Shown here piece by piece: positions 23,451-51,640 of a stretch of 64,000 nt of DNA. The position numbers were made by a program, and so were the translations under genes. The notes beneath the pieces are model-generated. The model was not told the DNA's origin. It saw only the letters and a list, made by a program, of their open reading frames with translations, and searched no databases. The stretch is from Vibrio pomeroyi (lineage in GTDB: Bacteria > Pseudomonadota > Gammaproteobacteria > Enterobacterales > Vibrionaceae). Where the stretch lies: positions 1,674,001 to 1,738,000 of the forward strand of contig NZ_AP025506.1 of the NCBI RefSeq assembly GCF_024347595.1, written 5' to 3'. Every line of letters starts with the position of its first letter. The first letter of the stretch is position 1.

Positions 23451-24248
23451 CTATTTATCGAGTTGGAAATAACATATGGTTAAATACGCTTGCTGTTGTT
23501 CTAAGTACCTGTATTGGCAGGTTACTGTCCTCAAATCACTACTTGATACACTGTCACTTATGATGCTACGAGTTGGCAAAGCGACTTGTTGTGATAATGC
23601 AAACTTAACGATGTCTTTATCTATCGCGATCAGTGTTGCTGAGCCAAAATCTAAGCCGTTAGTCACAAATCGAACCAACGCTTTATAGATCGCTTCCTTA
23701 GCCGAGAATAGCAATGTTACAGCTTCTGAATGAATCATCCCAAACTTCACCACAAGCTCTATCTCATCAACGTTTGCCACCATGTTTCCGATATCACGAC
23801 ACACGTCATTTGCTATTAGGTGTTGGATATCAATCCCGATGCTTTCTCTGTTTGAATTGCGAGAAGGTAAAACCGCGATACAAGCCAAGTCTTCACTGTG
23901 GGAAATCGAACCCACAACACCGGAAGGCAACGTTGGGCTTCGATCGATGTTTGACCCTAGCCTCTGATGCGCAAAGCCGAGTTGTAGTAACTCCTTCGCG
24001 ACCAAATAACGCCCTGCAAAGTATTCGGCCTTCCTTTTGTCGACCGAATGAGTAATTGCGATGGGGCAGTACACGTTAGTGATATCAAATAGCTTGTCAT
24101 TGAAGTGCTGTTGATCAAACTGCGCGATATGGATATCAATCTCAGTACCTTTGAAGTCCAAGTCTGTTTTGAAACTGAATTCATCGACCACAAACGGATG
24201 ATCCAGTGGTAATGGGTGAAAGATGTTGTTCTTCATTAGCTTAACCAT
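23451..24248 (-). CDS. 4'-phosphopantetheinyl transferase (EntD-type)
   Basis: A 265-residue Sfp/EntD-type enzyme. Family motifs are KRKAEYFAGRYLVAKELL (about 71-88), the RSPTLPSGVVGSISHS block (about 103-118), metal-binding IGIDIQ (about 137-142) and FSAKEAIYKAL (about 181-191). It moves the phosphopantetheine arm from CoA to the Ser of carrier domains, and here should activate the four T domains at Ser1023, Ser2532, Ser3603 (NRPS1) and Ser1104 (NRPS2). It is divergent from the fhuC-like gene with a Fur-box-like site between them. The start is uncertain: an ATG four codons in is also possible and neither has a clear ribosome binding site. Confidence 0.93.
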   Translation of the reverse strand: MVKLMKNNIFHPLPLDHPFVVDEFSFKTDLDFKGTEIDIHIAQFDQQHFNDKLFDITNVYCPIAITHSVDKRKAEYFAGRYLVAKELLQLGFAHQRLGSNIDRSPTLPSGVVGSISHSEDLACIAVLPSRNSNRESIGIDIQHLIANDVCRDIGNMVANVDEIELVVKFGMIHSEAVTLLFSAKEAIYKALVRFVTNGLDFGSATLIAIDKDIVKFALSQQVALPTRSIISDSVSSSDLRTVTCQYRYLEQQQAYLTICYFQLDK

Positions 24249-24352
24249 TTTGCAACAAGGTGAATAATCCGTAACAAGCGCATGTGATTCATCGTAAGAA
24301 CGCTAACCCTTTAAATTATAGGGAAAAAGCTCGTATGGCATATAGTTTAATC

Positions 24353-24375
24353 TAAATGAAAATCGTTTGCATTTG
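24353..24375. promoter_or_regulatory. Candidate Fur box between PPTase and importer genes
   Basis: The site AATGAAAATCGTTTGCATT is an imperfect palindrome matching the 7-1-7 Fur pattern (12 of 16 core positions of AATGATAATCATTATC). It lies in the divergent region and could control both the transferase and the importer operon. Confidence 0.6.
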
Positions 24376-24475
24376 AATTTTTGCAAGTGTATAAAAGCGT
24401 GTCTGTTAATGATTTTATGAATATGTTCGTATTTCATTAATTTTTTAGTGAATGATGTGTTTTAAGGTTGAAGAT

Positions 24476-25251
24476 ATGCTCGAAGCAAAGGGACTCGGTT
24501 TTAGCGTAGGAGAGAAGCAATTGCTCAAGACATTTGATGTGTCGTTTGAGCAAGGAAAGATTTACGCTTTAGTTGGGCACAACGGCTCCGGGAAATCGAC
24601 CTTGTTAAAGTTGCTCGCTAAGCAACAGCACGCCACTTCAGGTGATATTTTTCTGAAAGATAAACCTGTCGCTAAGTGGTCAGATAAAGATTTCGCTCAG
24701 CAAATTGCCTACTTACCACAACATTTACCCGCAACCGATAGTCTATCTGGCAAAGATCTCGTGAGCTTTGGTCGTTACCCTTGGCATGGCTTATTAGGTC
24801 GACTCTCAAGTCAAGATAAGCAATACGTTAAAGAGGCGATGCAACTCACCGACACTACCCAATACGCGGATCGTTTAGTCGATACTTTATCGGGTGGTGA
24901 ACGCCAGCGTGTGTGGCTTGCGATGCTGTTGGCTCAGCGCACCAAATACCTATTGCTCGATGAACCACTAGCAGCGCTCGATATTGGTCATCAGATTGAA
25001 ATGCTGACATTGATTAAACGATTGAGTGAAACGTTAGAGATCGGTGTGATCATCGTGATACACGATATCAACATGGCGGCACGCTTTTGCGATCATATCA
25101 TTGCCCTTCATCGCGGGGAGCTATTGGTCGAAGGCGCGGTTGATGAGGTGTTCAAAGAGTCGATATTGAAAGACATCTATGGTGTACCTATGCACATTAC
25201 TCAGCACTCGGCGGGTTATCCAGTCGCAATGCCTGGTGATTTGGAGCCAGC

Positions 25252-25255
<4 letters not shown>
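24476..25255 (+). CDS. Siderophore ABC importer ATP-binding protein (FhuC-like)
   Basis: A 259-residue ATPase from the ATG at 24476, chosen because TAAGG lies eight bases before it; an ATG 24 bases upstream has no such site. Walker A is GHNGSGKST (about 34-42), signature LSGGERQR, Walker B LLLDEPLAALD and switch His in VIHDINMA. The FepC/FhuC family energises ferric siderophore import through the inner membrane. Its stop overlaps the next gene's ATG (ATGA), and the genes order fhuC-D-B as in E. coli hydroxamate uptake. Confidence 0.93.
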
Positions 25256-28163
<2,908 letters not shown>

Positions 28164-28187
28164 TGGAATGATGTTGATGACACCATT

Positions 28188-28215
28188 CTAATTGCTAATT
28201 GCTAATTGCTAATTG
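28188..28215. repeat. Heptanucleotide tandem repeat (CTAATTG)x4
   Basis: Four perfect copies of CTAATTG (then CT) lie in the spacer between the permease and the exporter. The unit differs from the other heptamer arrays in the window. Confidence 0.95.
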
Positions 28216-28292
28216 CTCGGTGGTGTAAACAACGCAGAAATAAAACAATAAAGTCACTTGGTTAGGCTTAAACGGGATTACCTTGTCAATTT

Positions 28293-28314
28293 AATGATAA
28301 TGATAATCACAACA
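28293..28314 (+). promoter_or_regulatory. Fur box upstream of exporter-mbtH-NRPS operon
   Basis: GATAATGATAATCACAACA at 28296-28314 matches 15 of 19 positions of the consensus GATAATGATAATCATTATC, with the first 14 exact. It is 13-34 bases before the exporter start, so Fur with iron should repress the whole biosynthetic operon. Confidence 0.85.
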
Positions 28315-28326
28315 ATAATTAATTAA

Positions 28327-29994
28327 ATGGTATGTGAAATGGGATTAATCCTATTACTGGCTGAAAAACAGAAAAAGTCATTGTCCCTTGTGATCTTGTT
28401 AAGTATTGCGAGCGCATTTCTTAGTGTTGGGGTAATTGCGTTTATTCAGCACAAGTTACTTGAGAGTAGTGAGCCACTTTCTAACACCTTGCTCCAGTTC
28501 ACCTTGTTGTTGATTGGTCTGTTAGTGACCGCTACTTTCGCCCAGGTCGCACTTCATAAATTGGGTCATAAGTTCGTTTACAACAAACGTTGTGAATTGG
28601 TTTCTCAACTCTTGAATACCGATATCGAACAAGTTGAAAAAGTAGGAAGTGCAGGGGTGCTTGCTTCACTGAATACCGATATTCGAAATATCACTATCGC
28701 ATTCGTACATTTACCAGAGTTGATTTATGGCTTAGTGCTAACAGCGGTGGCTTTGGCCTACTTGGCTTTTTTGTCTATGCCACTGTTTGGCATCAGCTTG
28801 TTAATGCTCTCTCTAACGGGTGTTGTTGGCTATATGCTCGTTACACGCATCACCAAACACGTTAAACAGGTTCGTGAATATGACGACAAGCTGTATCACG
28901 ATTACCAGTCTTTGATTGATGGTCGTAAAGAGCTTTCGTTAAATCCATTCAGGGCCAAACGTTACTTCGATGAAACTTTTTCGGCGAATGCGGAAGGCTA
29001 TCGAAAAGAAGTGACACAAGCAGACATCTTAAATGGTTTTGCAGCCAACATGGCGAACACCGTTGTATTGGCGTTAATCGGTTTGAATTTTTACCTTGCG
29101 ACGGGTTTGGGGTGGGCATCACTGGAAGTCGCTTCTACGTTCGCCTTAGTTGTGCTGTTCATGAGAACGCCATTGATGTCAGCAGTCGGCTCAATTCCAA
29201 CATTGATCACCGCCAACATTTCGATGAAGAAATTGTCGTCGTTAGACTTGAGCACCGAACTAAGCCTCAATCCGAAGTTAGCGCAAACCAAAGTCTTCAA
29301 TTCACTTGAACTCGTAGGTGCCAGCTATCGATATCGTTCAGATTCTGATGGTGACTCTTTTGGTGTCGGTCCGATTGACTTCAAGATCGAACGTGGTGAA
29401 CACATCTTTATTATTGGTGGGAATGGTAGTGGAAAATCGACCTTTGCTCGCCTTCTAACAGGGCTTTACCGACCGCATTCTGGCCAGGTTTATGTCGATG
29501 GTAACGAAGTAACTCAAGAACATTGGCAAGACTATCGCCATCAATTCTCAGCAGTGTTCAGTGACTTTCATCTGTTTCATCAAATCGTCGATGGTGAAGG
29601 CCAAGACATTGAAAACCAATATATTGATGAGTGGATGATACGACTTGAAATGGCACACAAGGTCGAACATCAGCAAGGTCAGTTGAGCGACGTGAGATAT
29701 TCGCAAGGTCAACGGAAACGACTGGCATTGATGATGTCAGTACTCGACAAACGTGGATGCATTCTACTTGATGAATGGGCCGCTGATCAGGACCCAAGAT
29801 TTAGAAAACTATTTTACCGCCAGTTACTTCCGCTACTTAAACAGCGTGGTGTGACTGTTATCGCGATTACTCATGATGACGCTTATTTTGATGCCGCAGA
29901 CCGAATTTTCAAAATGGATACCGGCAATCTGATTGAGCTGAGTAAAGGGAATTTAGCTCAAGCGCACCAAGCACTAGAAAGTGTTGTCGCTTGA
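28327..29994 (+). CDS. Cyclic peptide/siderophore export ABC transporter (PvdE/SyrD-like)
   Basis: A 555-residue fused permease-ATPase. About six membrane helices (15-290) precede the nucleotide-binding domain: Walker A GGNGSGKST (about 364-372), an unusual signature YSQGQRKR instead of LSGGQ, and Walker B ILLDEWAADQDP. The SQGQ and DEWAADQDP variants are hallmarks of the PvdE/SyrD cyclic-peptide transporter family, which export peptide siderophores or precursors to the periplasm. It heads the operon exporter-mbtH-NRPS1-NRPS2. The start is uncertain: ATG at 28327 or 28339, neither with a good Shine-Dalgarno sequence. Confidence 0.92.
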   Translation: MVCEMGLILLLAEKQKKSLSLVILLSIASAFLSVGVIAFIQHKLLESSEPLSNTLLQFTLLLIGLLVTATFAQVALHKLGHKFVYNKRCELVSQLLNTDIEQVEKVGSAGVLASLNTDIRNITIAFVHLPELIYGLVLTAVALAYLAFLSMPLFGISLLMLSLTGVVGYMLVTRITKHVKQVREYDDKLYHDYQSLIDGRKELSLNPFRAKRYFDETFSANAEGYRKEVTQADILNGFAANMANTVVLALIGLNFYLATGLGWASLEVASTFALVVLFMRTPLMSAVGSIPTLITANISMKKLSSLDLSTELSLNPKLAQTKVFNSLELVGASYRYRSDSDGDSFGVGPIDFKIERGEHIFIIGGNGSGKSTFARLLTGLYRPHSGQVYVDGNEVTQEHWQDYRHQFSAVFSDFHLFHQIVDGEGQDIENQYIDEWMIRLEMAHKVEHQQGQLSDVRYSQGQRKRLALMMSVLDKRGCILLDEWAADQDPRFRKLFYRQLLPLLKQRGVTVIAITHDDAYFDAADRIFKMDTGNLIELSKGNLAQAHQALESVVA

Positions 29995-30053
29995 GTTTTT
30001 AAGAGCCAAGTTAGGTTCAAAACTAAAATAAAACAAAGTTAGTTGAGGAAAGA

Positions 30054-30266
30054 ATGAGTATTGATAGCCCGAATACAGAATTTACCGTTGTTATAAACGC
30101 GCAAGAACAATACAGCATTTGGCCAACTTATCACATCGTGCCAAACGGCTGGACTGAGGTTGGAGTAAAAGGCAACAAAGAACATTGCCTTGAACACATC
30201 CGTGAAGTTTGGACCGATATGCGCCCGAAAAGTTTACGCGACGCGATAGCTGCCCTAGAAAACTAA
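30054..30266 (+). CDS. MbtH-like NRPS accessory protein
   Basis: A 70-residue MbtH-domain protein with the family's conserved core: NAQEQYSIWP, PNGWTEVG, CLEHIREVWTDMRP (the W, W and DxRP positions). MbtH proteins bind A domains and are needed for their folding or adenylation. It lies 59 bases after the exporter and 92 bases before NRPS1, with a TTGAGGAAAG ribosome site, so it probably serves the adjacent synthetases, especially the three similar hydroxyornithine-type A domains. Confidence 0.95.
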   Translation: MSIDSPNTEFTVVINAQEQYSIWPTYHIVPNGWTEVGVKGNKEHCLEHIREVWTDMRPKSLRDAIAALEN

Positions 30267-30358: not shown

Positions 30359-33300
30359 ATGTCAGTGGATGATGAACAAATTTTGGATTCCGTAACCGCT
30401 TGGAACCCGCTCTCATACTCTCAACAACGTTTGTGGTTATTCCAACAATTACAACCGATGAGCTTAGCCTATAACCTGGGTGGCTTACTTTGGTTTGAAG
30501 GTAACGGTGTTACTGTTGAAAAGCTTCAACATTCATTAAACGAAATGGTCTCGGTATTTCCTTTGCTACGGAGTCAATTTTCTGAAATCGAAGGCAAAGC
30601 ATCTCAGCGCGTGTTGCCTTTTAATCCTGTTGATTATGATTGTATTGACATGCAGGGTGGCTCGGATGCGATTGAAGCGATTAATCAAGATGCTCGCCAA
30701 CGTTGGCAACAACCGTTCAATTTATTGGAAGGTAATCTTGCTCGCTGTTGTATTTATCAAGTCAGTGAGCATCGCTTCGCTGTGTTGCTTTCGACTCACC
30801 ACATCGTCACTGATGCTTGGTCATTTCAAATCAAAATTAAGATGCTGGTTAATTCGGTTGCAGGCAAAACCTACAATGGGAAAGAGGTTCAAAGTTATCT
30901 TGATTACGCAGCAGAGCAGGCCAGAGCAGAAACGTCTGATCTCTATAAGCAACAGAAAGCGGCGTGGATAGAGAATCAGTTTATCGGTGAAGAGTCGCTC
31001 TCGATATCAAATCTTAACGACCAATCGCTAGATACTTACGGGGCGAGACATGAGCTTGTTAGCTTGTCTAACGAAACCAATGAATCAATCAAAAAGTTAA
31101 GCAGTGAGTTAGGCGCGACCAAATTTGAGATTTTGGCATCGGCAATGATGCTAACGCTGCGCCAGTACTCTTCTAATGTTCATCCTTCAATTTGTGTTCC
31201 CGCCCTAAACCGAAATGCCAAGAATCGCAGAACGGTCGGTTTTTATGTGAATAGTGCGATGATCGGTTACCGCATTGACGCAGAAATGACGTTGTCTCAG
31301 TTAGTCAACACGACTCATGCTTCAATGAAAGCGTCGCTAGCCTACGAAAGTACTCCATTAGAAGCGCTAGTCGGCGACTTACCACTTCCTAGAACGGCAC
31401 TGAACTTCCGGAATCACGGTGGTAAATTTTCACTTAATACCAATGGGGTTTCGGCCAAATTTGAAGAATTTCCAGTATTAGAAACACCGTTTGAATTGGT
31501 GTTGGACGTTATTAATAAAGGCGATACACCGTTAAGGTTTGTCTATGCAAAAGAGAAGTTCACTCGTCCGTTTATCACCAAATTCATCGAAAGCTTTAAA
31601 GTAAACTTAACGACCATTGTTCAATCACCAGATGCAGCTGTGGCGTCGGTAAATGCAATCTCAAGCAAGGACATAAGGTTAATAGACCAATATGGTTCGG
31701 GTGATCACTCTTGGGACTATCGTCCGTTTACTGATTTAGTGACGGAGCAAGCCGTTAAGAGCCCGAATAGTATTGCGTTAAAACACCAAAACGAGTCAAT
31801 GAGCTATCTAGAGTTGGAGGCTCGTTCAAACCAGTTGGCGCATTCGATTTTGTCTCAAAATACCACTTCAAAGTCACCGATTGGTGTGATGATGGAACGT
31901 GGTGTCGATATGATCGTTTCAATGATTGCCGTTCTGAAAGCGGGTGCGCCTTTCTTACCGTTAGACCCAGATTATCCAACCGAACGATTGAATTTTATGT
32001 TGGAAGACAGTGGTGCTGAGCTACTCCTGACTCATTCTAAATCTAGGTCTAGATGCACTGATGTATTAAACGGTAGTGATGGTGTTACTCAGTTCTGTGT
32101 TGAGAGTGCAGAGCTTTCAAGTCTTCCTTCAGATAATTCTTTTAAACGTCCGTTGGCCGAAGAGCTGGCCTATATCATCTATACCTCTGGTTCAACGGGA
32201 AAGCCAAAAGGCGTCACCATATCTCATGAAGGTTTGAGCATGCATGTTCAAACGATTGGTCAGCGATATGGCATGAGTGAAGATGACGTTGAACTGCACT
32301 TTGCGTCGATTAGTTTTGATGGTGCGGTTGAACGTTGGACTGTGCCATTAGCCTTTGGCTCTCGCTTGGTGATTCGTGATCAAGAGTTATGGACCGCGGA
32401 AAAGACCTGCGATGTACTACAACAAGAAAAAGTGACCATTGCTTGTTTTCCTCCAAGTTATGTCGGCCCGTTACTCGACTGGATTGAAGCGACAAAACCG
32501 ACATTGGCACTGCGATCCATTACTTTGGGTGGTGAAGCGTTTACTCGAGAGACCTTTGAACGAATCCAAGACGTGTTAACTCCACCACGAATCATTAACG
32601 GTTATGGTCCAACAGAAACGATTATCACACCGATGATTTGGGAAGCGTATGCACAAGATTCAATGGAGAGCGCATACGCGCCGATTGGAACTCCAGTTGG
32701 TGACAGAAAGCTGTATGTACTTGATTCAGAGTTAAGCCAAGTGCCATTTGGATGCAGTGGTGAGTTGTACATTGGTTCTGAAGTGGGCTTAGCTGAAGGC
32801 TATTTGAAACAGCCTAATTTAACCGCTGAACGTTTTGTTCCTGATCCATTTACTGATAATGGCGAGAGGATGTATCGAACGGGTGACCTCGTTAAGTGGC
32901 GCGATGATGGAATCATGGAGTACCTAGGTCGGGTCGACCAACAGGTAAAAATTCGTGGGTTCCGTGTCGAACTAGGGGAGATCGAATCCCAACTTCAGGC
33001 GCTTTCAGGCGCGGAGTTCTGTGCTGTTGTCGATCATGAATCTCCTACGGGTAAAAAGCTTGTCGGTTATGTTCAGCTAAGTGAAGGTCAACAAAACGAG
33101 ACTCAAGCAAAGGATGCCGAACTAAACGATGTTCTATCGCAAAGTACTCATCGAAATGAAGAAGCGCGATGGATTGAACAATTGGGACAAACGCTGCCTG
33201 ATTACATGGTACCTGCGTGTATTATTGTGCAAAACAAGTTGCCTCTGACACCTGCAGGTAAGGTCGATAGAAAGCAATTGCTTGCTCCTGATTGGTCTGA

Positions 33301-41362: not shown

Positions 41363-44300
41363 ACGACCCAATAGACAAGAACAATCTACAAACAAAGAGT
41401 CAGTCAAAAGCGACGACTCAACCCAAGGCCACTAACCAAGGACAAATCGATAAACACGCGTTAGCAAAACGTTTTTTACAACTGGGAAAACCAGAGCAAA
41501 TCAAGTTTATCGAACTGCTGAGTAACAAAGGTTTAGATTTCGAAAAACTACCTATTGTTGCGGTTGGTTCTGAACAGCAAGTCTCGCTGTCTCCGGCACA
41601 ACAACGTTTGTGGGATATTTATCGTCTAGACAAAGGTAACAGTGCCTACCATATGTCGGGGACGTTCAAAGTTAATGGTGATTTGGATATTGACCGATTA
41701 ACCCAGCTCGTCAACCAAGTCTTAGAACGCCATGATGTGCTGAGAACACGCTTTATTACCAGTGCCACGGAGCAAGTTATTCAGTTTGTCGACAAAGCGG
41801 CGGTGATGCATCCGGTTGGTGTTGATGCTCAAAGTTGGAATCAAGAGCAAATTCAAGACGCAGAGCAGGAGTTTATTGGCAAATCGTTTGAGCTTGAGAC
41901 TGAACTGCCAATTCGTATGCAATGTTTACGAACCGGTGATCATTCGTGGAAGCTACAGCTTGTCATGCATCATATCGTTTCTGATGGTTGGTCGATTGGC
42001 GTATTTTTAAATGAACTCGTTACGCTTTATCAACAAGGAAAATTGCCAGAGTTAGCGATTCAATATCGTGATTATTCTCATTGGCAAAGCGCGTTATTGG
42101 ATGCGGGGAAAGGGCAGCAACATATTGAGTTTTGGAAGCGTGAGCTTTTACAAACAGATCAAAGCCCACTGTTCCCTTGGCATAGTGACGTTACACCAAA
42201 TCAAAGACGCATTGCTGATTCGATCAGCTATGAACTCAATGAGTCGCAATCTGACAAACTAAAACAGATTGCGCGTCAGTTGTCGGTAACGACTTCGAGC
42301 TTATGGTTAGGGATATGGCAGGCTGCTTTAGCCAAGGTAACGTATCGCACAGATATATCGGTCGGCGTACCGATGGCGAATCGTACCCGCCACGAAGTGT
42401 CTAATCTGATAGGCTTTTTTGTGAATACAATGGTTATTCAGCAATCCATAACGCCTAACAGCTCTTTATCTGATGTGATTGAAGGAGCCCACAACAAAGT
42501 ACTTGAGGCGCAAGAACATCAACTATTGCCATTCGATCAGTTAGTCAGTGCTTTCACGACTGAGCAAAACGACGGTGAGCCAAAGAATTACGAACGAAAA
42601 GCAGGACAAACTCCCTTGTTTCAAGTGCTTTTTAACCATCAAAGTTCGTTGGCTGATGAGATTCAATTAGATAGTCAACTTACATTGAAGGCTGAGCAAC
42701 AAAACGGGGAATTTGCGTTATTCGATATTGCATTGGATATACGTGAGACAGAACGAAAAACATGTGTCGTGCTCACGTACTCAAAGGATCGAATCGATTC
42801 TGATGTGATGGTTGAGTTGAATGCTGTACTTGAACATCTAATCGGCAGTCTGGAGTCGCATGTAGATAACAGCCTAGCTCGAATCAATCACCTCACACGA
42901 CATGATGCATCTGTTTTAGAAAAACTATCGCAACCAGAAGGCGAGTGGGAGTTTAAGTCGATTGTTGAACTTATTGGAGTTCAAGCCAAAGTGCGACCTG
43001 ATGCCATCGCACTAAAGCATCATGACTTTGAGTTGAGCTACGTGCAATTGGATTCGGCGTCATCAGAATTGGCGTCCAAACTTGTCGCTAAAGGCGTAGT
43101 TCGAGATCAAGCGATCGGTGTGCTGTTCGAGAGAGGCGTCGAAATGATTGTCTCTATGGTTGCAGTCATGAAGGCGGGCGGGGCATTTCTACCACTAGAC
43201 CCTGATTATCCAACTGAGCGTCTTGCATATATGGTTCAAGATTCTAAGGCTGGGTTTGTGATTACGCAGCAAAGCTTAGAGCAACGTTGGCAAAACATTC
43301 AATCTGAGTTTGACGTTTCATCACCGCAAGTAAGTTCTTTAGTTTATCGTCTGCAAGACTTATCTCAATCTTTAGATAACGGACAATGTTTACCAACTGA
43401 ATTAATGCCAACGATACTCCCTGAGCAATTGGCATACATCATTTATACCTCCGGTTCGACAGGTAAACCGAAAGGCGTGGCAGTCAACCACAATGGGTTA
43501 TCTATGCATGTTCAAACCATTGGTAAGCAATATGGTATGACCCCAGAAGACGTTGAGCTTCACTTTGCATCGATTAGCTTTGATGGTGCCGTTGAGCGTT
43601 GGACTGTGCCGTTAGCGTTTGGTAGCAAGCTTGTGATCCGAGATCAAGAGTTGTGGAGTGCTGAGAAAACCTGCGAGGTACTGTGCAATGAAAAGATTAC
43701 TATTGCCTGTTTCCCGCCGAGTTACGTGGGTCCGTTGCTTGATTGGATAGAATATCAACAACCATCTATCAGTGTTCGCTCCTGGACTCTTGGTGGTGAA
43801 GCTTTTACCGCTGAAACCTATCAACGTTTGCAAAAGGTTGTGAATCCTCCTCGTATTATCAATGGTTATGGACCGACAGAAACGGTTGTCACACCGATGA
43901 TTTGGCGAGCATACCCTCAAGATAAATTGGATAGTGCGTATGCTCCGATTGGTCAGCCTGTCGGCGAACGTCGTTTGTACATATTGGATTCGCAGCTCAA
44001 TAAGGTCGCATTTGGCGCCGTTGGGGAGTTGTATATCGGTGGTGAGGTTGGGTTGGCTCGTGGGTATTTAGACCAACCAGACTTAACTTCTGAGCGGTTT
44101 ATGCCTGACCCGTTTAATCTCGATGATACGAGCAATAGACATAGCAACAACCAACGAGCAGGTCAGCGTATGTATCGAACTGGTGATCTGGTTCGGTGGA
44201 GCCGCGATGGCGTGATGGAATACATAGGCCGTGTAGACCAACAGGTTAAGATAAGAGGATTTCGCGTTGAGCTAGGAGAGATTGAAAGTCGCCTCCAATC

Positions 44301-46938
44301 CATCTCTAAGGTTGAGCATTGCGTTGTTGCAGTGGAAGAGGTAGGCCAACATAAGCAGTTGTTTGGTTATTTGCAGAGTAGTGAGCCAGAGCGTTTTGAT
44401 CTTGATGATATTCTCGAAGTGCTTTCACGAGAGTTACCCGATTACATGGTTCCAAACCAATTAATGCTCTTGGACAAATTGCCTTTAACACCTGCTGGTA
44501 AAGTTGATAGAGCCTCGCTCCCCGCGATGGATGAGAATATTCAATCGGTCGCGACAGTTGTGTTACCTAAAACCGAACAAGAGGCGTTGCTCGTAGATAT
44601 ATGGCAGCAGCTACTAGGCATCGATCAAGTGAGCTGTGCGGATAACTTCTTTGCATTGGGAGGTGATTCGATACTTTGCTTACAAATGGTGAGTAAAGTA
44701 CGTGTTGCGGGCTACAACTTAACACCACAACAAGTCTTTGAAGGCAAAACGTTGTCTGACCTAGCCGAAGCGTTGGATATCCATAAGGCCGCAACAGAGC
44801 GTGTTTTGACCGAAGAAGCGTTTGGCTTAATGCCAATCCAGGCGCATTTCTTTGCTCAAGAGTTTCCTGAGCCTGATCATTGGAATCAGCATATCTGTGT
44901 TGAGCTTAAACAAGACATGAATACCGACTATTTGGAGTTGGCGATTCAAGCGTTGGTTAAACAACACCCAAGTCTGAGGCTCGCTTTTAAACAACATCAA
45001 GGTCGTTGGAAACAACAGTATCAACCTTATCAAGAGCGCCAATACCTTTGGATAAGTTCGGTGAGCTCTGAAGACGCATTTTCGGCATTTGCTCAAGAGA
45101 TTCATCAAAGCATGGATATCGATACTGGTCGATTAATTCAGGCCGGTTACGCGCAATGTTCAGAATCCCCAAATCGCTTGATGATAGCTATTCACCACTT
45201 AGCAGTGGATGGTGTGTCTTGGCGAATTCTGTTAGATGACCTTTGGAAGGCGTATCAACAACAAGTTGCGGGGCAAGCTATCCAGTTAATGCCGAATTCG
45301 AGTGAAATCGATGAAACCCTCCGTCAGGTTGAACAATGGTCGACTACTGAACAGGGAGAATTGATGCAATACACTTGGCATGATTTGGTCCAGAAATCGT
45401 CAAATTCAGTCAAGATTAATCAAGAGCTCCCTCCTGCGCTTTATCAAGATAAAGAGGTTTACAAAACTGAACTATCGAATGACTTCACTCAAACGTTGTT
45501 GCGTGTTTCAAACACCAAGCACGGAGATATCCAAAGCGTGTTGATTGCTGCATTAGTGTCAGTATTAACGAGTGAAGCGCAACCTGAGGTTCCTCTGTAC
45601 TTAGAGGGACATGGTCGAGAAGCCTCTGTTTTTTCTAGCGTGGATCTATCAAGAATGGTGGGTTGGACGACCAGTTTGTACCCAATGATTGGGCATTTCC
45701 AACCTGATATTCTAGGTGTGCTCAACCAAACTCATGACTATTTAGAGAGCGTTAAGCAAGATGGCGGCATTGGCTATGGCGTTAGGTATTTAAACAAAGA
45801 GACTAATGATAGTTATCGCGCAAGTGCAACGTTTAACTATCTCGGCCAGTACTCAAGTGATGGGTTCGCACACTGGTGTACACCTGTAGAAGACGGAAGC
45901 CTACCTCAATCCGGCTTAAATCAGATGCTGACGCCACTTGTCGTCAATGCTCAGATTGTGTCTGGACAGTTAAGCTTGTCATGGGAGTTTGCGAAAACAC
46001 ACTATTCATTAGCAGAAATCGAGCACATAGCAGAACAGTATGTTGTGCGTTTAACGGCGCTTGTCAATGCTATGAAACAAGGAGCGAAAGTAGCAAAGAG
46101 TAATCAGTGCATAGCCAACCTGCGATTGGTAGACAAACTCAATAATACAGCGTGCGAGATTGAACCTGTTTTCTGTATTCACCCTGTGACAGGGCGTGTG
46201 ACGGGTTACCAGAGACTCGCACAAGCACTGGAAGGAGATAGAAGTGTATTTGGCATAAAGTCACAGAGCTTTGTATCAGAGAGCGTATTTGATTCCTCGT
46301 TTAATGATATGGCCGACACCTACTACCAAACGATCAAACAGCTCCAGCCTCATGGCCCTTATCGATTAGTTGGATGGTCATTGGGCGGGGCACTCGCTCA
46401 GGAAATCTCACTACGTTTAGAGAGAAATGGGGACGATATTGCATTCGTCGGGTTACTTGATTGCTATGTGCCAGGTACTGAAATTGCTGAAGATCAGTGG
46501 GACTCATCAACCTCAAAAACCAAACTCATGGAACATATTTCATTACTGCTCGGTTCAATTACTGAAGCTCAAGGGCAGCGATGTTTAGAGTTGCTCGATT
46601 CCGTATCTCCTCCAAGGTGGCCAGAAGTCTTTAATATATGGTTAGCGGAAAATAACTTCGACCGCTACATGGCGGACAATGCAAAACAGATGCTCTATAG
46701 CTGGGCAGTGGAACAACACATGCGTGCTTTGTGCCGCGGGTATCAATTACCGAGCATAAAAACCCAGTTGCATTGTTGGTGGGCAGGGCAACCAAATGGG
46801 CGTTCAGAGCTGTTATCAAAAGGGTTGAATAAGCATAACAAGCTTCAGTATTCCTCTGTTATAGGTACGGATCATTTAGGGATCGTACAGAACAATACAG
46901 TAATCAAAGACTTATACAGACATTTGTATTGTGAATAA
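41359..46938 (+). CDS. NRPS2: C-A-T-E-TE, terminal siderophore synthetase module
   Basis: A 1859-residue single-module synthetase. A basic/Gln-rich docking-like N terminus (1-70) precedes the C domain (HHIVSDG, His204), the A domain (TSGSTG near 697; pocket D-G-E-C-T-G-G-V-T, same as A1/A2 of NRPS1), T (Ser1104), an E domain (HHLAVD, His1279; GHGRE and VGWTTSLYP motifs) and a thioesterase (GWSLGG, Ser1674; His1839 near the end). It adds the fourth residue, inferred as acetyl-hydroxyornithine, sets it to D and releases the chain. A4 has an extra polar loop (NLDDTSNRHSNNQRAGQ) before the conserved YRTGD, absent in A1 and A2. It is translationally coupled to NRPS1. Hydrolysis rather than cyclisation is likely if the product is amphibactin-like, but the TE cannot be typed from sequence alone. 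Confidence 0.95.
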   Translation: MNDPIDKNNLQTKSQSKATTQPKATNQGQIDKHALAKRFLQLGKPEQIKFIELLSNKGLDFEKLPIVAVGSEQQVSLSPAQQRLWDIYRLDKGNSAYHMSGTFKVNGDLDIDRLTQLVNQVLERHDVLRTRFITSATEQVIQFVDKAAVMHPVGVDAQSWNQEQIQDAEQEFIGKSFELETELPIRMQCLRTGDHSWKLQLVMHHIVSDGWSIGVFLNELVTLYQQGKLPELAIQYRDYSHWQSALLDAGKGQQHIEFWKRELLQTDQSPLFPWHSDVTPNQRRIADSISYELNESQSDKLKQIARQLSVTTSSLWLGIWQAALAKVTYRTDISVGVPMANRTRHEVSNLIGFFVNTMVIQQSITPNSSLSDVIEGAHNKVLEAQEHQLLPFDQLVSAFTTEQNDGEPKNYERKAGQTPLFQVLFNHQSSLADEIQLDSQLTLKAEQQNGEFALFDIALDIRETERKTCVVLTYSKDRIDSDVMVELNAVLEHLIGSLESHVDNSLARINHLTRHDASVLEKLSQPEGEWEFKSIVELIGVQAKVRPDAIALKHHDFELSYVQLDSASSELASKLVAKGVVRDQAIGVLFERGVEMIVSMVAVMKAGGAFLPLDPDYPTERLAYMVQDSKAGFVITQQSLEQRWQNIQSEFDVSSPQVSSLVYRLQDLSQSLDNGQCLPTELMPTILPEQLAYIIYTSGSTGKPKGVAVNHNGLSMHVQTIGKQYGMTPEDVELHFASISFDGAVERWTVPLAFGSKLVIRDQELWSAEKTCEVLCNEKITIACFPPSYVGPLLDWIEYQQPSISVRSWTLGGEAFTAETYQRLQKVVNPPRIINGYGPTETVVTPMIWRAYPQDKLDSAYAPIGQPVGERRLYILDSQLNKVAFGAVGELYIGGEVGLARGYLDQPDLTSERFMPDPFNLDDTSNRHSNNQRAGQRMYRTGDLVRWSRDGVMEYIGRVDQQVKIRGFRVELGEIESRLQSISKVEHCVVAVEEVGQHKQLFGYLQSSEPERFDLDDILEVLSRELPDYMVPNQLMLLDKLPLTPAGKVDRASLPAMDENIQSVATVVLPKTEQEALLVDIWQQLLGIDQVSCADNFFALGGDSILCLQMVSKVRVAGYNLTPQQVFEGKTLSDLAEALDIHKAATERVLTEEAFGLMPIQAHFFAQEFPEPDHWNQHICVELKQDMNTDYLELAIQALVKQHPSLRLAFKQHQGRWKQQYQPYQERQYLWISSVSSEDAFSAFAQEIHQSMDIDTGRLIQAGYAQCSESPNRLMIAIHHLAVDGVSWRILLDDLWKAYQQQVAGQAIQLMPNSSEIDETLRQVEQWSTTEQGELMQYTWHDLVQKSSNSVKINQELPPALYQDKEVYKTELSNDFTQTLLRVSNTKHGDIQSVLIAALVSVLTSEAQPEVPLYLEGHGREASVFSSVDLSRMVGWTTSLYPMIGHFQPDILGVLNQTHDYLESVKQDGGIGYGVRYLNKETNDSYRASATFNYLGQYSSDGFAHWCTPVEDGSLPQSGLNQMLTPLVVNAQIVSGQLSLSWEFAKTHYSLAEIEHIAEQYVVRLTALVNAMKQGAKVAKSNQCIANLRLVDKLNNTACEIEPVFCIHPVTGRVTGYQRLAQALEGDRSVFGIKSQSFVSESVFDSSFNDMADTYYQTIKQLQPHGPYRLVGWSLGGALAQEISLRLERNGDDIAFVGLLDCYVPGTEIAEDQWDSSTSKTKLMEHISLLLGSITEAQGQRCLELLDSVSPPRWPEVFNIWLAENNFDRYMADNAKQMLYSWAVEQHMRALCRGYQLPSIKTQLHCWWAGQPNGRSELLSKGLNKHNKLQYSSVIGTDHLGIVQNNTVIKDLYRHLYCE

Positions 46939-47008
46939 TTTTATAAATATCTATTGCTGTAATGTTTCATTTTGAAAATTACGTGGTACACTTCGTTAAA
47001 TTATTAAT

Positions 47009-47034
47009 CGCAATGATAACCATTATCGTTATTG
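47009..47034 (+). promoter_or_regulatory. Strong Fur box upstream of siderophore receptor
   Basis: AATGATAACCATTATC at 47012-47027 matches 15 of the last 16 positions of the Fur consensus, and a second overlapping half site (CGTTATTG) extends to 47034. It is 50-75 bases before the receptor start and should give iron-dependent repression of the receptor-acetyltransferase-hydroxylase operon. Confidence 0.92.
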
Positions 47035-47083
47035 TTTGTGTTTTTATTACAATTGGTTCATAGCCGTATTGAAGGAGAATTAT

Positions 47084-49309
47084 ATGAATCGGCACTTTAT
47101 GCGTACCCCAACAGCTCTTGCGGTCGCTTTAGTCATATCGTCAGGAATGGTTCAGGCCAACGAAGATGAAACCGTTGTTGTTATTGGTCAGCAGCTAGAA
47201 GACAGTTCAGTAGGTCCAGATTTTAGTTACGTGGGATTAAGCAGTCGCACAGCAACCAAAACTGACGTTGCGATAGGTGAGACACCGCGCGCTATTTCGA
47301 TTGTGACTCGCGAACAAATGGACGACCGAGCGTCAATCAGTATTGCCGATGCATTGCAGTACACACCAAGTATTCAAGCGAACTACTTTGGTGAAGACAA
47401 CAAGCAAGATTGGTTTGTTATCCGTGGCTTTAAGCAAGCAAACAGTGGCTTGTATCAAGACGGAACGCGTTTGTACTCATCTGGCTTCTACAGCTGGCAA
47501 ATCGACCCGTTTGGACTGGAGAGAGTAGAAATCTTACGTGGTCCAGGTTCTGCATTATACGGCCAAACTCCACCAGGTGGTGTAATCAACGTTGTGAGCA
47601 AGCGTCCGCAATTTGACGGTGGTTCTGGTCAATTTGCTATTGAATACGGTACTGATGATCGCAAGCAGATTAGCTTAGATGTGAACTCTGAAGTTAACGA
47701 TAAAATGGCGTTTCGCCTGCAGGCACTTGGGCGTAAAAATGGCAGCCGTGTCGATGGTGTAGAAGCTGAACGCATTTTTATCGCTCCTTCTCTGGCTTAT
47801 AAATTCACAGACGACACAAAAATCACACTACTAACCAGCTACCAGAAAGATGATTCTGATCCGTACCTACAGTTTTTACCAATGGAAGGAACGTTAACCT
47901 CGAATCCGAATGGCAAAATCAGTGATAGCACTGCAGTAGGCAATACAGATTGGGAAACGTTCGAGCGTGAACAACTGTCAGTAGGTTATGAATTTGAACA
48001 TCATTTCAATGACAGCACTTACTTCATGCAGAACACGCGTTACAGCAAGATGGACATTAACCTTCGTCAAATGTATTCCCTTGGTTATGCAAAAGATAAT
48101 CGGTTAGGAGCATATGACCCTACGGACAGTCAGATTCTACGTGGGGCATCAACGGAAGAAGGTACATCGGACGCATTCAACATTGATAACCGAGTTGTAC
48201 ATACCTTTAAAACCGGGGTTGTAGAGCATACGTTATTGGCTGGTATTGATTACCAAAACATCGATATTGATAGTAAAGATTATGCTGCAGATCCATTTGT
48301 TGCAGATGGCAATAGTTCGATTGGCATTCCAGTGCCCGGAGTGGGCTTAGTTCCAATCGCTAATCCATTGTTTGATGTGTTCAACCCATCATATAGCAAT
48401 AACGTTACTCTGCTTGATTCAACCTTTAGTGTTGTTGATGAATCTGACCGCCAAACGACCAAGACCAAAAACAATCAGCTTGGCTTGTATCTACAAGATC
48501 AGATGATGATTGCTGACAAATGGGCTGTTCAGATTGGTGTTCGTTACGATGATTCTCAAAACAAGACTCACAACACCACGACAGGCAAGAAAACTAAGGT
48601 TGATAACGAAGAATGGACAACCAACTTAGGTGTTGCTTACCTAATGGATAATGGCTTTACGCCATACGTTAGTTACGCACAGTCGTTCAATCCTATTATT
48701 GAACTTGACGTAAATGGCGAACCGGCTAAACCAGAACGCGGCGAACAGTATGAAGTGGGTTTGAAATACCAACCGCGTAGCTTTGAAGGCTACTTCAACA
48801 TAGCGGCATTTGAAGTCTCGAAAGAAAACCTAGCACGCACTGTTAATAGCCAGCTAACGCAAATTGGTGAAGTTCGTAACCGTGGTCTTGAATTAGAGGC
48901 GGTGGCTAACGTAACCGAAGAGCTAACGTTAATCGGTAACGTGTCATTCATTGATTCTGAAATTACTGAAGATGCAAACAGCAGTTATGTGGGTAACACT
49001 CCGTCACAAATTGCTGATCAACTGGCTTCGGCTTGGGCAAACTACCGTTTCTTGAGTGGTCCACTTGATGGCCTAACCGTTGGTGCGGGTGCACGTTACG
49101 TTGGTGATTCATACGCTGATAATACCGAGACTAACGTTGTTCCTTCATACACATTGTTTGACGCAACATTGAGTTACCGAATCGAAGATTACAAGTTCCA
49201 AGTTGCAGCGAAGAACTTAGCAGACAAAGAGTACGTGGCTACGTGTGACTTCTATTGCTTCTACGGCGATCGCCGTAATGTGATTGCGAGCGTAACTTAT
49301 GACTGGTAA
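47084..49309 (+). CDS. TonB-dependent siderophore receptor (FhuE/FhuA-type)
   Basis: A 741-residue receptor from the ATG at 47084, chosen because GAAGGAG lies eight bases before it and a signal peptide (ALAVALVISSGMVQA) follows at once; a longer frame from 47036 has neither. Near the mature N terminus is a TonB-box-like DETVVVIG. The plug has ETPRAISIVTREQMDDR, FVIRGF and the LRGPGSALYGQTPPGGVIN motif of hydroxamate-type receptors. The 22-strand barrel ends ASVTYDW with a terminal Trp. It should import the siderophore made by the adjacent NRPSs. It overlaps the acetyltransferase start by 11 bases, which couples uptake and biosynthesis expression. Confidence 0.94.
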   Translation: MNRHFMRTPTALAVALVISSGMVQANEDETVVVIGQQLEDSSVGPDFSYVGLSSRTATKTDVAIGETPRAISIVTREQMDDRASISIADALQYTPSIQANYFGEDNKQDWFVIRGFKQANSGLYQDGTRLYSSGFYSWQIDPFGLERVEILRGPGSALYGQTPPGGVINVVSKRPQFDGGSGQFAIEYGTDDRKQISLDVNSEVNDKMAFRLQALGRKNGSRVDGVEAERIFIAPSLAYKFTDDTKITLLTSYQKDDSDPYLQFLPMEGTLTSNPNGKISDSTAVGNTDWETFEREQLSVGYEFEHHFNDSTYFMQNTRYSKMDINLRQMYSLGYAKDNRLGAYDPTDSQILRGASTEEGTSDAFNIDNRVVHTFKTGVVEHTLLAGIDYQNIDIDSKDYAADPFVADGNSSIGIPVPGVGLVPIANPLFDVFNPSYSNNVTLLDSTFSVVDESDRQTTKTKNNQLGLYLQDQMMIADKWAVQIGVRYDDSQNKTHNTTTGKKTKVDNEEWTTNLGVAYLMDNGFTPYVSYAQSFNPIIELDVNGEPAKPERGEQYEVGLKYQPRSFEGYFNIAAFEVSKENLARTVNSQLTQIGEVRNRGLELEAVANVTEELTLIGNVSFIDSEITEDANSSYVGNTPSQIADQLASAWANYRFLSGPLDGLTVGAGARYVGDSYADNTETNVVPSYTLFDATLSYRIEDYKFQVAAKNLADKEYVATCDFYCFYGDRRNVIASVTYDW

Positions 49310-50276
49310 CCACCAGCCTTTGAACACTCTGCCCGATGGGCAGAGTGTTTCTTTAAGTGAGGCACAAGACAGTTACTGCGTGGAAGTAAGCTCAGGTGTG
49401 ATTGAAGTTGTGCGTGAAACAAACCAGTTTTGGCGTTTAACTCAAATGACAGCGCTTAATGCGGAGCAACTTTCTGCCTTTGCCATCCTGTTCTCTGCTA
49501 ACCCTGAGATTCGAACGATTGAGCTCGGACAGTTTAGAAGCGAAGTGCTGGATTCTTTGTGTTTTGAAACTGCCGAAGGTTTAAAGGTACTTTGGCGTGA
49601 AGCCGTTATGCAAACACCTGATCTTTGGCTTAAAAATAGGAATCATAATCTTTATCCGCACAAGCAAGTCCTCGACGCTGCAGGGTATCACCCAGCCAGA
49701 CCAAAGCCCTTATTGGGTGAGTTGTATCGCCGTTATATTCCCGATCTTAACGCCGTTCTCACTCTAGAAGGCTTAGATGTCGACAAACACTTAACCTTCT
49801 TCAATAAGTGGCAAAACAACCAGCGTGTCGCGAATTTCTGGGAGCAAACTGGCTCACTGGAAGAGCACAGGAAGTACTTAGAAGAATCAGTTAAAAACAA
49901 TAAGAATCAGCTTCTTATTGTGTGCTTAGACAACCAGCCTTTCGCTTATATCGAAGTGTACTGGACCAAAGAAGACCGAATCGCACCTTATTACGCGGCG
50001 GGGGATTATGACCGAGGTATCCATATGTTGGTCGGTGAAGAATCCCACCGTGGTGCACATAAAGTTGCTGCTTGGTTGCCTTCTGTTTGCCACTTCATCT
50101 ACCTATCAGATCCTCGTACAGAAAAGATTGTTAGCGAGCCAAGAGCCGATAACGACAAGATGATCGGATATCTGCAGAAGTATGGATTTGCCAAAGTAAA
50201 AGAATTTGAATTTCCGCATAAACGTGCGGCTTTAATGTGTCAGTTGAAAGACAGCTTTTTCAGTAACGAGTTCTAA
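49299..50276 (+). CDS. Siderophore N-acetyltransferase (IucB/AlcB-like)
   Basis: A 325-residue protein. The C-terminal half (about 145-325) is a GNAT-fold IucB-type domain with LYRRYIPDLNAVLTL, NKWQNNQRVANFWEQTGS, FAYIEVYWTKEDRIAPYYAAGDYDRGIHMLVGE (in pieces) and LSDPRTEKIVSEPRADN, near-diagnostic of acetyl-CoA:N6-hydroxylysine / N5-hydroxyornithine acetyltransferases. The N-terminal 140 residues are a less conserved extension, as in other siderophore acetyltransferases. It should acetylate the hydroxylamine made by the next gene to give the hydroxamate that chelates iron. The ATG lies inside the receptor gene's end, an 11-base overlap. Confidence 0.92.
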   Translation: MTGNHQPLNTLPDGQSVSLSEAQDSYCVEVSSGVIEVVRETNQFWRLTQMTALNAEQLSAFAILFSANPEIRTIELGQFRSEVLDSLCFETAEGLKVLWREAVMQTPDLWLKNRNHNLYPHKQVLDAAGYHPARPKPLLGELYRRYIPDLNAVLTLEGLDVDKHLTFFNKWQNNQRVANFWEQTGSLEEHRKYLEESVKNNKNQLLIVCLDNQPFAYIEVYWTKEDRIAPYYAAGDYDRGIHMLVGEESHRGAHKVAAWLPSVCHFIYLSDPRTEKIVSEPRADNDKMIGYLQKYGFAKVKEFEFPHKRAALMCQLKDSFFSNEF

Positions 50277-50350
50277 TAATGAAGCGGTAAGTACTGGTAA
50301 AGGGAGTCGGAATAGGGGCCTTGTACCCAACAATTATCATGAGGTTATAC

Positions 50351-51640
50351 ATGACGAAACAAATTAAGGAATATGATGTTCTCGGAGTAGGTTTTGGCCC
50401 TGCTAATTTATCGATAGCCATTGCGTTAGAAGAACAAGCTAAAGACAAAGGCTTAAGTTATTGCTTCTTAGAGCAAAAACCTGATTTTGAATGGCACGGC
50501 GGCATGTTGCTTGATGGAACAAGAATGCAGATCTCTTGTTTGAAAGATCTGGTGACGCTACGAAACCCAACAAGCCCATACTCGTTCGTAAACTATTTGC
50601 ACACCAAAGACAGGCTCAACGCTTTCATCAACCTAGGCAGCATGAACCCTTCCCGTGTTGAGTTTAACGACTACCTGACTTGGGTTGCTAATCAATTCTC
50701 AGAACGCGTAAATTACGGCCAGCGAGTCATTGATATTGAAGCGATTGAAGAAAACGGTCATAGCTCAAAAGTAAAAGTTACCTCTACCGATATACACGGT
50801 AATCAGACGGTTCGAATCGCTAAGAACCTTATTGTTGGTATGGGAGGAATGCCGAAGCTACCGAAACAGTTTGAAGGCCATGATAATGAACAAATTATCC
50901 ATTCTTCAAAATACAAAGCATGGCGCGAGACCTTTAAAGGAAATTCAGATCCTAAAATCGCGATAGTTGGAGCAGGGCAGAGCGCGGCAGAAATATTCGT
51001 TGATCTAACAAACCGTTATGCGGATGGCGAGATACATATGGTCAACCGTCGCTTCGCATTACACCCTGCTGATGACAGTCCGTTCGTTAATGAGGTGTTC
51101 GATCCTGATTTCACTGACCACATGTATGAAAGCACGCAAGAGCAGCGCGATCATATTCTTTCTCGTTTTAGTGCAACCAACTACTCGGTAGTCGATACAG
51201 AAGAGCTCAATGCAATATATGAGTTACTCTATTTGCAAAAAGTAACGGGAGAAGGCAAGCATCAGCATCTACGTTGCCATGACATTCAAGAGGTTGCGCA
51301 GAAGGATGACAAAGTCGCATTGCGCTTGAATGACACGATCAACAAAGCACAGGCATGGAATGAATATGATGCCATCATTCTTGCCACTGGTTATCGATAC
51401 GATGAGTTCAACCAAATGCTGAGCTCAATTGAACCTCTGATTGATAGTAAATCGGTAGGGCGTTCATACCAATTAGACATGAAGCCAAGCTGTGACGTTA
51501 AAATCTTCCTACAGGGTTGTTGTGAATCTTCTCACGGCCTAAGTGACACGCTTCTTTCAGTGTTGGCTGTTCGTTCTAAAGAAATTGTGGATGCTCTTCT
51601 ATCTAATTCTAAGCAAACGGTTGAGACTGAAAAAGCGTAA
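50351..51640 (+). CDS. L-ornithine N5-/L-lysine N6-monooxygenase (PvdA/IucD family)
   Basis: A 429-residue flavoprotein from the ATG at 50351, chosen over an ATG 30 bases upstream because TGAGG sits six bases before it. FAD motif GVGFGPAN (about 12-19), NADPH motif GAGQSAAE (about 207-214) and the C-terminal ATGYRYDEF fingerprint are all present, with the family's DLVTLRNPTSPYSFVNYL substrate block. It hydroxylates the side-chain amine of ornithine (or lysine) with NADPH and O2, the first committed step for hydroxamate residues. Ornithine is preferred by context with the NRPS pockets, not proven. It ends the receptor-acetyltransferase-hydroxylase operon, followed by a hairpin. Confidence 0.93.
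   Translation: MTKQIKEYDVLGVGFGPANLSIAIALEEQAKDKGLSYCFLEQKPDFEWHGGMLLDGTRMQISCLKDLVTLRNPTSPYSFVNYLHTKDRLNAFINLGSMNPSRVEFNDYLTWVANQFSERVNYGQRVIDIEAIEENGHSSKVKVTSTDIHGNQTVRIAKNLIVGMGGMPKLPKQFEGHDNEQIIHSSKYKAWRETFKGNSDPKIAIVGAGQSAAEIFVDLTNRYADGEIHMVNRRFALHPADDSPFVNEVFDPDFTDHMYESTQEQRDHILSRFSATNYSVVDTEELNAIYELLYLQKVTGEGKHQHLRCHDIQEVAQKDDKVALRLNDTINKAQAWNEYDAIILATGYRYDEFNQMLSSIEPLIDSKSVGRSYQLDMKPSCDVKIFLQGCCESSHGLSDTLLSVLAVRSKEIVDALLSNSKQTVETEKA

What the first reader, a model, noticed from the sequence alone, without database searches (positions are those of the whole stretch)
23451..51640. Complete amphibactin-type hydroxamate siderophore locus with a predicted product
All required parts are present in one stretch: activation (PPTase), synthesis (MbtH, two NRPSs), tailoring (N-hydroxylase, acetyltransferase), export, receptor and FhuCDB-type import. 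The module order gives acyl - D-residue 1 - L-residue 2 - Ser - D-residue 4, with 1, 2 and 4 sharing one pocket. Three N5-acetyl-N5-hydroxyornithines plus serine with an N-terminal fatty acid is the amphibactin headgroup known from marine Vibrio. The assignment of the locus to that product is inference.
Basis: partly seen in the sequence, partly recalled or inferred. Interest (0 to 1): 0.8.

Follow-up and report, generated by a model that had tools for sequence, protein, structure and literature searches.

The report
Amphibactin-type siderophore gene cluster in Vibrio
This stretch holds a complete set of genes for making and re-importing an amphibactin-like iron-scavenging molecule, a system already described in other marine Vibrio; several related genomes lack the making genes at the same spot but keep the import genes, and one of them seems to have exchanged that import-only version with another species.

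Summary
Window 23451-51640 holds PPTase, FhuC-D-B importer, ABC exporter, MbtH, two NRPSs, TonB receptor, acyltransferase and ornithine hydroxylase, all open. NRPS layout is C-A-T-E-C-A-T-C-A-T | C-A-T-E-TE. Pockets 1, 2 and 4 read DGECTGG(I/V)T; pocket 3 is serine-type. All six condensation-family domains of the genome lie here; no IucA/IucC synthetase was found. Gene order, strands and Fur-box positions fit the amphibactin (abs/abt) cluster of Vibrio neptunius as far as the passages read describe it (PMC8573110). The product remains a prediction.

What I add: (1) a third Fur-like box, before the exporter, seen in 16 of 17 producer loci. (2) Of 196 genus genomes, 38 carry the receptor and 17 the synthetase; in six relatives the same chromosomal site keeps fhuCDB and receptor without the biosynthetic genes, with remnants of the exporter in four. 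(3) In one of the six, the segment holding the receptor is 95-100% identical to that of another species' genome, against 74-97% (or no match) in the surroundings, suggesting exchange of an uptake-only allele by recombination.

The parts
23451..24248 (-). 4'-phosphopantetheinyl transferase (entD-like)
   Evidence: PF17837 65.7 bits, PF01648 32.7 bits; one of three ACPS-family matches in the genome
24355..24373 (.). Fur-like box upstream of fhuC (same place as the abtC Fur box of V. neptunius)
   Evidence: 3 of 19 mismatches to the published abtC box; weak match to the consensus pattern (3 mismatches)
24452..25255 (+). FhuC-type ATPase of the ferri-siderophore importer
   Evidence: PRK10575 FhuC 323.7 bits, below its cut-off of 433
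25252..26190 (+). FhuD-type substrate-binding protein
   Evidence: PF01497 89.2 bits; PRK10576 FhuD 186.7 bits, below its cut-off of 252
26187..28163 (+). FhuB-type permease (double FecCD)
   Evidence: NF007866 FhuB 782.1 bits over cut-off 554
28293..28311 (.). third Fur-like box, upstream of the exporter
   Evidence: one mismatch to the pattern on the minus strand; core GATAATGATAATCA upstream of the exporter in 14 of 16 other producer loci, one base changed in G094, degraded in G153
28327..29994 (+). ABC exporter, permease plus ATPase (cyclic-peptide/siderophore exporter family)
   Evidence: TIGR01194 362.7 bits (cut-off 286.2), PRK10522 698.1 bits (cut-off 604)
30054..30266 (+). MbtH-like protein, 70 aa
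   Evidence: PF03621 72.4 bits, cut-off 27; coordinates read
30359..41362 (+). NRPS1, 3667 aa: C(starter by position)-A-T-E-C-A-T-C-A-T; residues 1, 2 and 3
   Evidence: (translation; codes)
41359..46938 (+). NRPS2, 1859 aa: C-A-T-E-TE; residue 4 and release
47012..47030 (.). Fur-like box upstream of the receptor gene
   Evidence: one mismatch on the minus strand, two on the plus strand
47084..49309 (+). TonB-dependent ferri-siderophore receptor (abtA equivalent), likely ATG at 47084 (ORF open from 47036)
   Evidence: PF00593 193 bits, PF07715 89 bits; TIGR01783 393.6 bits
49299..50276 (+). N-hydroxyornithine acyltransferase (Acetyltransf_8)
   Evidence: PF13523 170.3 bits; nearest solved chain SidF transacylase, 162.9 bits
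50321..51640 (+). L-ornithine N5-monooxygenase
   Evidence: PF13434 383.3 bits; nearest solved chain L-ornithine 5-monooxygenase 3s5w, 372.3 bits

Best explanation
The locus makes and recycles an amphibactin-type acyl-peptidic tris-hydroxamate siderophore. Inferred steps: ornithine is N5-hydroxylated (50321-51640) and N5-acetylated (49299-50276). The PPTase arms the carrier domains and MbtH supports adenylation. NRPS1 joins a fatty acyl group, D-OHAcOrn, L-OHAcOrn and L-Ser; NRPS2 adds a second D-OHAcOrn and the thioesterase releases the chain. The ABC exporter moves it out of the cytoplasm, the TonB receptor takes up the ferric form and FhuDBC imports it. Fur-type boxes before fhuC, the exporter and the receptor would switch the locus on in iron starvation. 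Shown here: the parts, their order, pockets and E domains, and their conservation in 17 genomes. Not shown: the molecule, acyl chain, configuration and regulation.
For: All parts present and open. Pockets 1, 2 and 4 alike and module 3 serine-type in 17 of 17 producer genomes (one position of module 1 unread in G094); DGECTGGITK is named among codes that accept N-delta-modified ornithine (PMC12283262, passages). E domains by nearest solved chains. Ornithine rather than lysine hydroxylase. All six C/E domains of the genome here, no IucA/IucC. Fit to the V. neptunius cluster: divergent entD, ten genes on one strand (five abs, five abt; the window has five synthesis and five transport genes on its plus strand), abtC first, absE-absF-abtA-absB in that order, absA last, Fur boxes before abtC and abtA (PMC8573110 passages). 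The published 19-base abtC box occurs without mismatch upstream of fhuC in 8 of 8 loci of the 54-56% NRPS2 group, which share gene order and pockets with the window.
Against: No chemistry. E1 is a weaker match than E4 (92.6 against 186.2 bits; TIGR01720 below cut-off for both), so D configuration at residue 1 is less sure. Nothing but position marks the first C domain as a starter domain. The domain order and pocket residues of the V. neptunius and Alcanivorax synthetases were not available to me, nor the product assigned to each abs/abt name except abtA. The published abtA box was found with up to 4 mismatches only in G137, not in the window; the window has a Fur-like box of another sequence at that place.
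Confidence: 0.92

Rival explanations
1. The locus makes a close cousin rather than amphibactin: a moanachelin (serine replaced by Ala or Gly), or the same headgroup with another acyl group on N5 or on the N-terminus.
For: The acyl donor of the acyltransferase cannot be read from sequence; its nearest solved relative, SidF, is named for a longer donor, cis-anhydromevalonyl-CoA. The fatty acid is not encoded in the locus.
Against: Module 3 reads DVWH(I/L)SLID in 17 of 17 producer genomes, a serine code (recalled). Amphibactins are reported from V. cyclitrophicus 1F53 (PMC6836290, passage) and from V. neptunius with this gene order.
Confidence: 0.07
2. The locus is intact in sequence but silent or partly dead, so that the strain lives on siderophores of neighbours, as its uptake-only relatives presumably do.
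For: Biosynthetic genes are absent at this site in six relatives.
Against: All reading frames are open and C, E, TE and carrier core motifs are present; three Fur-like boxes are present; NRPS2 DNA is 93-96% identical in the three closest producers.
Confidence: 0.05

Closest known systems
Amphibactin cluster abs/abt of Vibrio neptunius PP-145.98 (PMC8573110, passages; original description Galvis et al. 2020, seen as a reference only)
   Same: entD divergent from ten genes on one strand, abtC first, absE-absF-abtA-absB, absA last; Fur boxes before the first transport gene and the receptor; uptake and synthesis in one locus
   Different: The eight loci that carry the exact published abtC box are only 54-56% identical to the window in NRPS2 protein and gave no match to the window's flanking genes in the fetched stretches. 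A third Fur-like box stands before the exporter in both groups but is not among the two named in the passages read
Amphibactins of Splendidus-clade vibrios (9.5% of V. splendidus and 25% of V. tasmaniensis genomes carry the genes, PMC8573110 passage; V. cyclitrophicus 1F53 as producer, PMC6836290 passage; its clade recalled)
   Same: Possibly the same subtype as the window; patchy presence
Marinobactin / formomarinobactin clusters (PMC13037486, passages)
   Same: Acyl-peptidic hydroxamate siderophore, two NRPSs, MbtH, ABC transporter, hydroxylase
   Different: Six modules and an N-terminal acyl-AMP ligase; the window has four modules and no acyl-activating domain
Siderophore non-producers that keep transport genes in wild vibrios (Cordero et al. 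2012, recalled; not held)
   Same: Synthesis lost, uptake kept
   Different: Here resolved to junctions between species-level genomes, with signs that the uptake-only segment itself was exchanged

Membership tests
Amphibactin biosynthesis/uptake cluster (V. neptunius type) | Gene order: divergent entD, then ten genes on one strand beginning with abtC, with absE-absF-abtA-absB and absA last | tested here: met
   against PMC8573110 passages; the product of each named gene other than abtA was not stated there and is inferred
Amphibactin biosynthesis/uptake cluster (V. neptunius type) | Four modules, three alike (modified ornithine) and one serine, in third place | tested here: met
   DGECTGGITK listed for modified ornithine; serine code recalled; residue 517 seen
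Amphibactin biosynthesis/uptake cluster (V. neptunius type) | Ornithine N5-hydroxylase and hydroxyornithine acyltransferase | tested here: met
   acetyl as the donor was not testable
Amphibactin biosynthesis/uptake cluster (V. neptunius type) | Fur boxes upstream of the first transport gene (abtC) and the receptor (abtA) | tested here: met
   positions agree; abtC box 3 of 19 mismatches; receptor box present but of another sequence; binding not tested
Amphibactin biosynthesis/uptake cluster (V. neptunius type) | Same NRPS domain order as the published synthetases, epimerization domains included | tested here: inconclusive
   Similar lengths and the same pockets in 8 loci bearing the published abtC box; the published domain table was not available
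Amphibactin biosynthesis/uptake cluster (V. neptunius type) | Production of an acylated three-OHAcOrn-plus-Ser peptide | not testable with these tools
   needs mass spectrometry
Moanachelin | Ala or Gly in place of Ser (recalled) | tested here: not met
   module 3 DVWHISLID
Marinobactin/formomarinobactin | Six modules and N-terminal acyl-AMP ligase | tested here: not met
   four modules; NRPS1 starts with a C domain

The most novel reading that the evidence does not exclude
In this clade siderophore production is switched off not only by fresh deletions but by import of a ready-made uptake-only allele: a recombination tract of about 2.7 kb, carrying the receptor between two junctions where the biosynthetic genes are missing, replaces the biosynthetic block in another species and leaves the receptor behind the promoters of the importer and exporter.
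Probability: 0.55. Interest if true: 0.55.

Novelty: new member of a known kind. Interest (0 to 1): 0.35.

Why it matters
The locus is a clean, complete example of a known marine siderophore system and holds all the NRPS condensation domains of its genome, so the strain looks like a good single-siderophore test case. The comparative result is the more useful part. At one chromosomal site, related species hold either the whole locus or an uptake-only version, so the junctions can be read. One case looks like exchange of the uptake-only allele between species, which bears on how siderophore cheating arises in wild bacteria.

Tried and rejected
Rejected: (a) A second NRPS or IucA/IucC-type siderophore in the same genome: no further condensation domain, no IucA/IucC match. 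(c) Receptor-plus-importer as the ancestral state to which synthesis was added later: less likely, not excluded. Four of the six keep a piece of the exporter's 3' end before the receptor and two keep the whole exporter, and the same full gene order occurs in the distant 54-56% group. No NRPS remnant was found in the six. In G105 and G120 the alignment runs 38 and 49 bases past the receptor stop into the start of the acyltransferase ORF, but that stretch is hairpin-like by eye and may be a terminator, so I do not count it. (d) The second copy in G165 as a working duplicate: its NRPS1 matches fall into 14 pieces, many in shifted frames, so an assembly artefact or a decayed copy; undecided.

Led nowhere: the genome-contig scan gave one named relative only (Vibrio sp. 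HI00D65; contig length and place agree with G153). A class-wide search of 369 genomes found no NRPS2 relative at E <= 1e-250 except the window's own genome, so no Alcanivorax comparison was possible. Look-up of Cordero et al. by a recalled DOI failed. The rpoB-gyrB tree has five open forks and was used only to show that producers and uptake-only genomes are interleaved.
Full report
Observation. The window lies in a two-contig assembly of 5,659,581 bases, completeness 100%. ORF and domain searches confirm each element of the finding at the stated coordinates; MbtH, too short for my ORF list, is at about 30054-30266. NRPS1 (3667 aa) reads C-A-T-E-C-A-T-C-A-T and NRPS2 (1859 aa) C-A-T-E-TE. The two E domains were told from C domains by their nearest solved chains (PvdL, bacitracin synthase 3, TycA, GrsA), by HHxxxD...SW and E(S/G)HGR motifs in the translation (motif meaning recalled) and, weakly, by TIGR01720, below its cut-off for both. 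Pocket residues, taken by motif anchors at the recalled GrsA positions, are DGECTGGIT, DGECTGGVT, DVWHISLID and DGECTGGVT; the tenth residue was appended by the script without being read, and the lysine is seen. A survey of A-domain signatures names DGECTGGITK among those accepting N-delta-modified ornithine (PMC12283262, passages).

Product. The domain order predicts acyl-D-X-L-X-L-Ser-D-X with X = N5-acetyl-N5-hydroxyornithine. The hydroxylase scores 372 bits against an ornithine 5-monooxygenase of solved structure, 277 against the lysine enzyme MbtG and 200 against another lysine 6-monooxygenase. The acyltransferase is nearest to SidF, so acetyl as donor is inference. No acyl-activating domain lies in the locus, unlike formomarinobactin and marinobactin synthetases (PMC13037486, passages); acyl-CoA as donor to the first C domain is inference, and a search of that domain found only ordinary C domains. 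The genome has six condensation-family matches, all six in this locus, no IucA/IucC match and two further ACPS-family genes besides the locus PPTase.

Known relatives. PMC8573110 (passages) gives the V. neptunius amphibactin genes as absABDEF and abtABCDE, all on one strand, divergent from entD, transcribed from abtC to absA, with Fur boxes before abtC and abtA and with abtA as the ferri-amphibactin receptor. It reports the cluster in Coralliilyticus, Orientalis and some Splendidus-clade vibrios. PMC13249269 (passages) cites the V. neptunius amphibactin B cluster as an antiSMASH reference. Among 196 genomes drawn from the genus, 20 have an NRPS2 match at E <= 1e-200: 17, the window's included, at 54% identity or more, and three with only a distant NRPS at 34-35%. 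In the window and the 16 fetched loci, 17 of 17 have the same gene order from fhuC to the hydroxylase and the same pockets apart from I/V and I/L changes and one unread position in G094. A PPTase match was found in 12 of the 16 fetched producer loci; the four misses may be divergence, since matches go down to 31%. The exact published abtC Fur box is present in 8 of 8 loci of the 54-56% group, and with three mismatches in the window and 8 of 8 other loci of its own wider clade. Flanking genes (gnat, mfs) are shared by the window and seven of those eight loci, not by G076 and not by the 54-56% group. The window therefore belongs to a divergent branch of a published system.

Regulation. Three Fur-like boxes lie in promoter positions: 24355-24373, 28293-28311 and 47012-47030. 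The pattern with up to three mismatches occurs 14 times in the window against 11.1 expected, so most such sites mean nothing; the only two sites with a single mismatch are those before the exporter and before the receptor (chance of single-mismatch sites not computed). The passages read of PMC8573110 name two boxes, before abtC and abtA. The one before the exporter is seen in 16 of 17 producer loci (exact core in 15, one base changed in G094) and is degraded in G153.

Natural variants. The receptor was found in 38 of the 196 genomes (E <= 1e-150, identity 61% or more), all 17 producers among them, so 21 have a receptor without an NRPS2 match at E <= 1e-200. I fetched 20 of these 21 (not G188), about 20 kb each (14 kb for G029). 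In 16 of 20 the receptor lies beside fhuCDB; in 4 of 20 no fhu gene was found in the stretch. None of the 20 stretches gave a tblastn match at E <= 1e-4 to MbtH, NRPS1, NRPS2, the acyltransferase or the hydroxylase. Six (G105, G017, G193, G108, G075, G120) sit at the window's own chromosomal site. In five of the six, sequence matching window position 30020-30021, just after the exporter stop, is followed after 22-28 bases by sequence matching 47028-47035 in the receptor leader; in G105, 30019 is followed after 44 bases by 47042. On the other side, sequence matching 49309-49358, at or just past the receptor stop, is followed after 25-134 bases by sequence matching 51837-51855. The exporter is whole in G017 and G193; only a piece of its 3' end is left in G105, G108, G075 and G120. 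By eye, the receptor's own Fur-like box is gone in these six, while the exporter's box can still be read upstream of the receptor in G108 and G120. G172 and G190 gave no match to the flanking genes and keep the receptor leader, with alignment reaching the last 38 bases of NRPS2, which points to a separate loss.

Exchange. On a tree of rpoB and gyrB (23 genomes) producers and uptake-only genomes are interleaved, with at least five changes (quick method, five open forks). On the fhuB tree at least six changes are needed and on the receptor tree three, and G105, G017 and G193 stand in different places. G017 and G193 are 98.0% identical in the receptor but 84.2% in the exporter, 89.2% in fhuB, 89.1% in fhuD, 93.9% in fhuC, 92.0% in the downstream MFS gene and 96.9% in the two core genes. 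In nine consecutive 300-base windows, from the exporter end through the receptor, G193 is 95-100% identical to G017. The exporter before it is 93-99% identical to the window genome, and the first 2.7 kb scanned on the left are 92-98% identical to G071 (98.5% alike in core genes). The 600 bases after the tract match G165 and G071 (95-96%, then 87-88%) better than G071's distance from G017 would suggest, G017 itself giving 89% and 74% there. Against this reading: G017 and G193 also reach 92-97% in a number of windows of fhuC, fhuD, fhuB and the MFS gene, so the contrast is clear but not uniform, and no formal recombination test was run. G105 has flanks 92-100% identical to G153 (core 98.5%; one window of 85% at the edge), and G153 is a producer; but its fhuCDB is 91-97% identical to the window genome or G165, and three windows in the middle of its receptor are 98-99% identical to G174. 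The simplest account is replacement of parts of the locus by recombination between species-level genomes, including transfer of an uptake-only segment between the G017 and G193 lineages, direction unknown. An older shared deletion followed by patchy recombination around it is not excluded.

Verdict. The finding is real and correctly read, but the system is published for Vibrio, so its interest is modest. Selective loss of synthesis with uptake kept in wild vibrios is, as I recall, also published (Cordero et al. 2012; not held). Five searches of the held library (listings only, capped, open-licence papers only) showed no paper on exchange of uptake-only alleles at an amphibactin locus.

Noticed in passing
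G193 (L064) and G017 (L063), exporter end to downstream of receptor: Uptake-only segment 95-100% identical between two species-level genomes whose surroundings are 74-97% alike or do not match; looks like exchange of a biosynthesis-less allele.
   Followed up: partly
window 28293-28311: Fur-like box before the exporter, seen in 16 of 17 producer loci; not among the two boxes named in the passages read of PMC8573110.
   Followed up: partly
window 25252-26190 (FhuD): FhuD DNA is only 78% identical to G139 while fhuC is 96%, fhuB 90% and NRPS2 96%; the substrate-binding gene seems to be exchanged or to evolve fast.
   Followed up: no
window 23451-24248 (PPTase): PPTase matches range from 87% to 31% protein identity in 12 of 16 fetched producer loci; among 20 uptake-only stretches only G193 gave a whole match and G105 one in two pieces.
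   Followed up: no
G165, contig C1 about 3,474,000-3,488,000 and on to 3,498,000 (L060, L061): Second copy of the locus and its right flank, in the opposite orientation, with many frame breaks; assembly artefact or decayed duplicate.
   Followed up: partly
window 17068-20725: Photolyase (19364-20725), deoxyribodipyrimidine photolyase-related protein (17808-19367) and a short-chain dehydrogenase in one run on the minus strand.
   Followed up: no
window 2-1648: End of another TonB-dependent receptor gene cut by the window edge.
   Followed up: no
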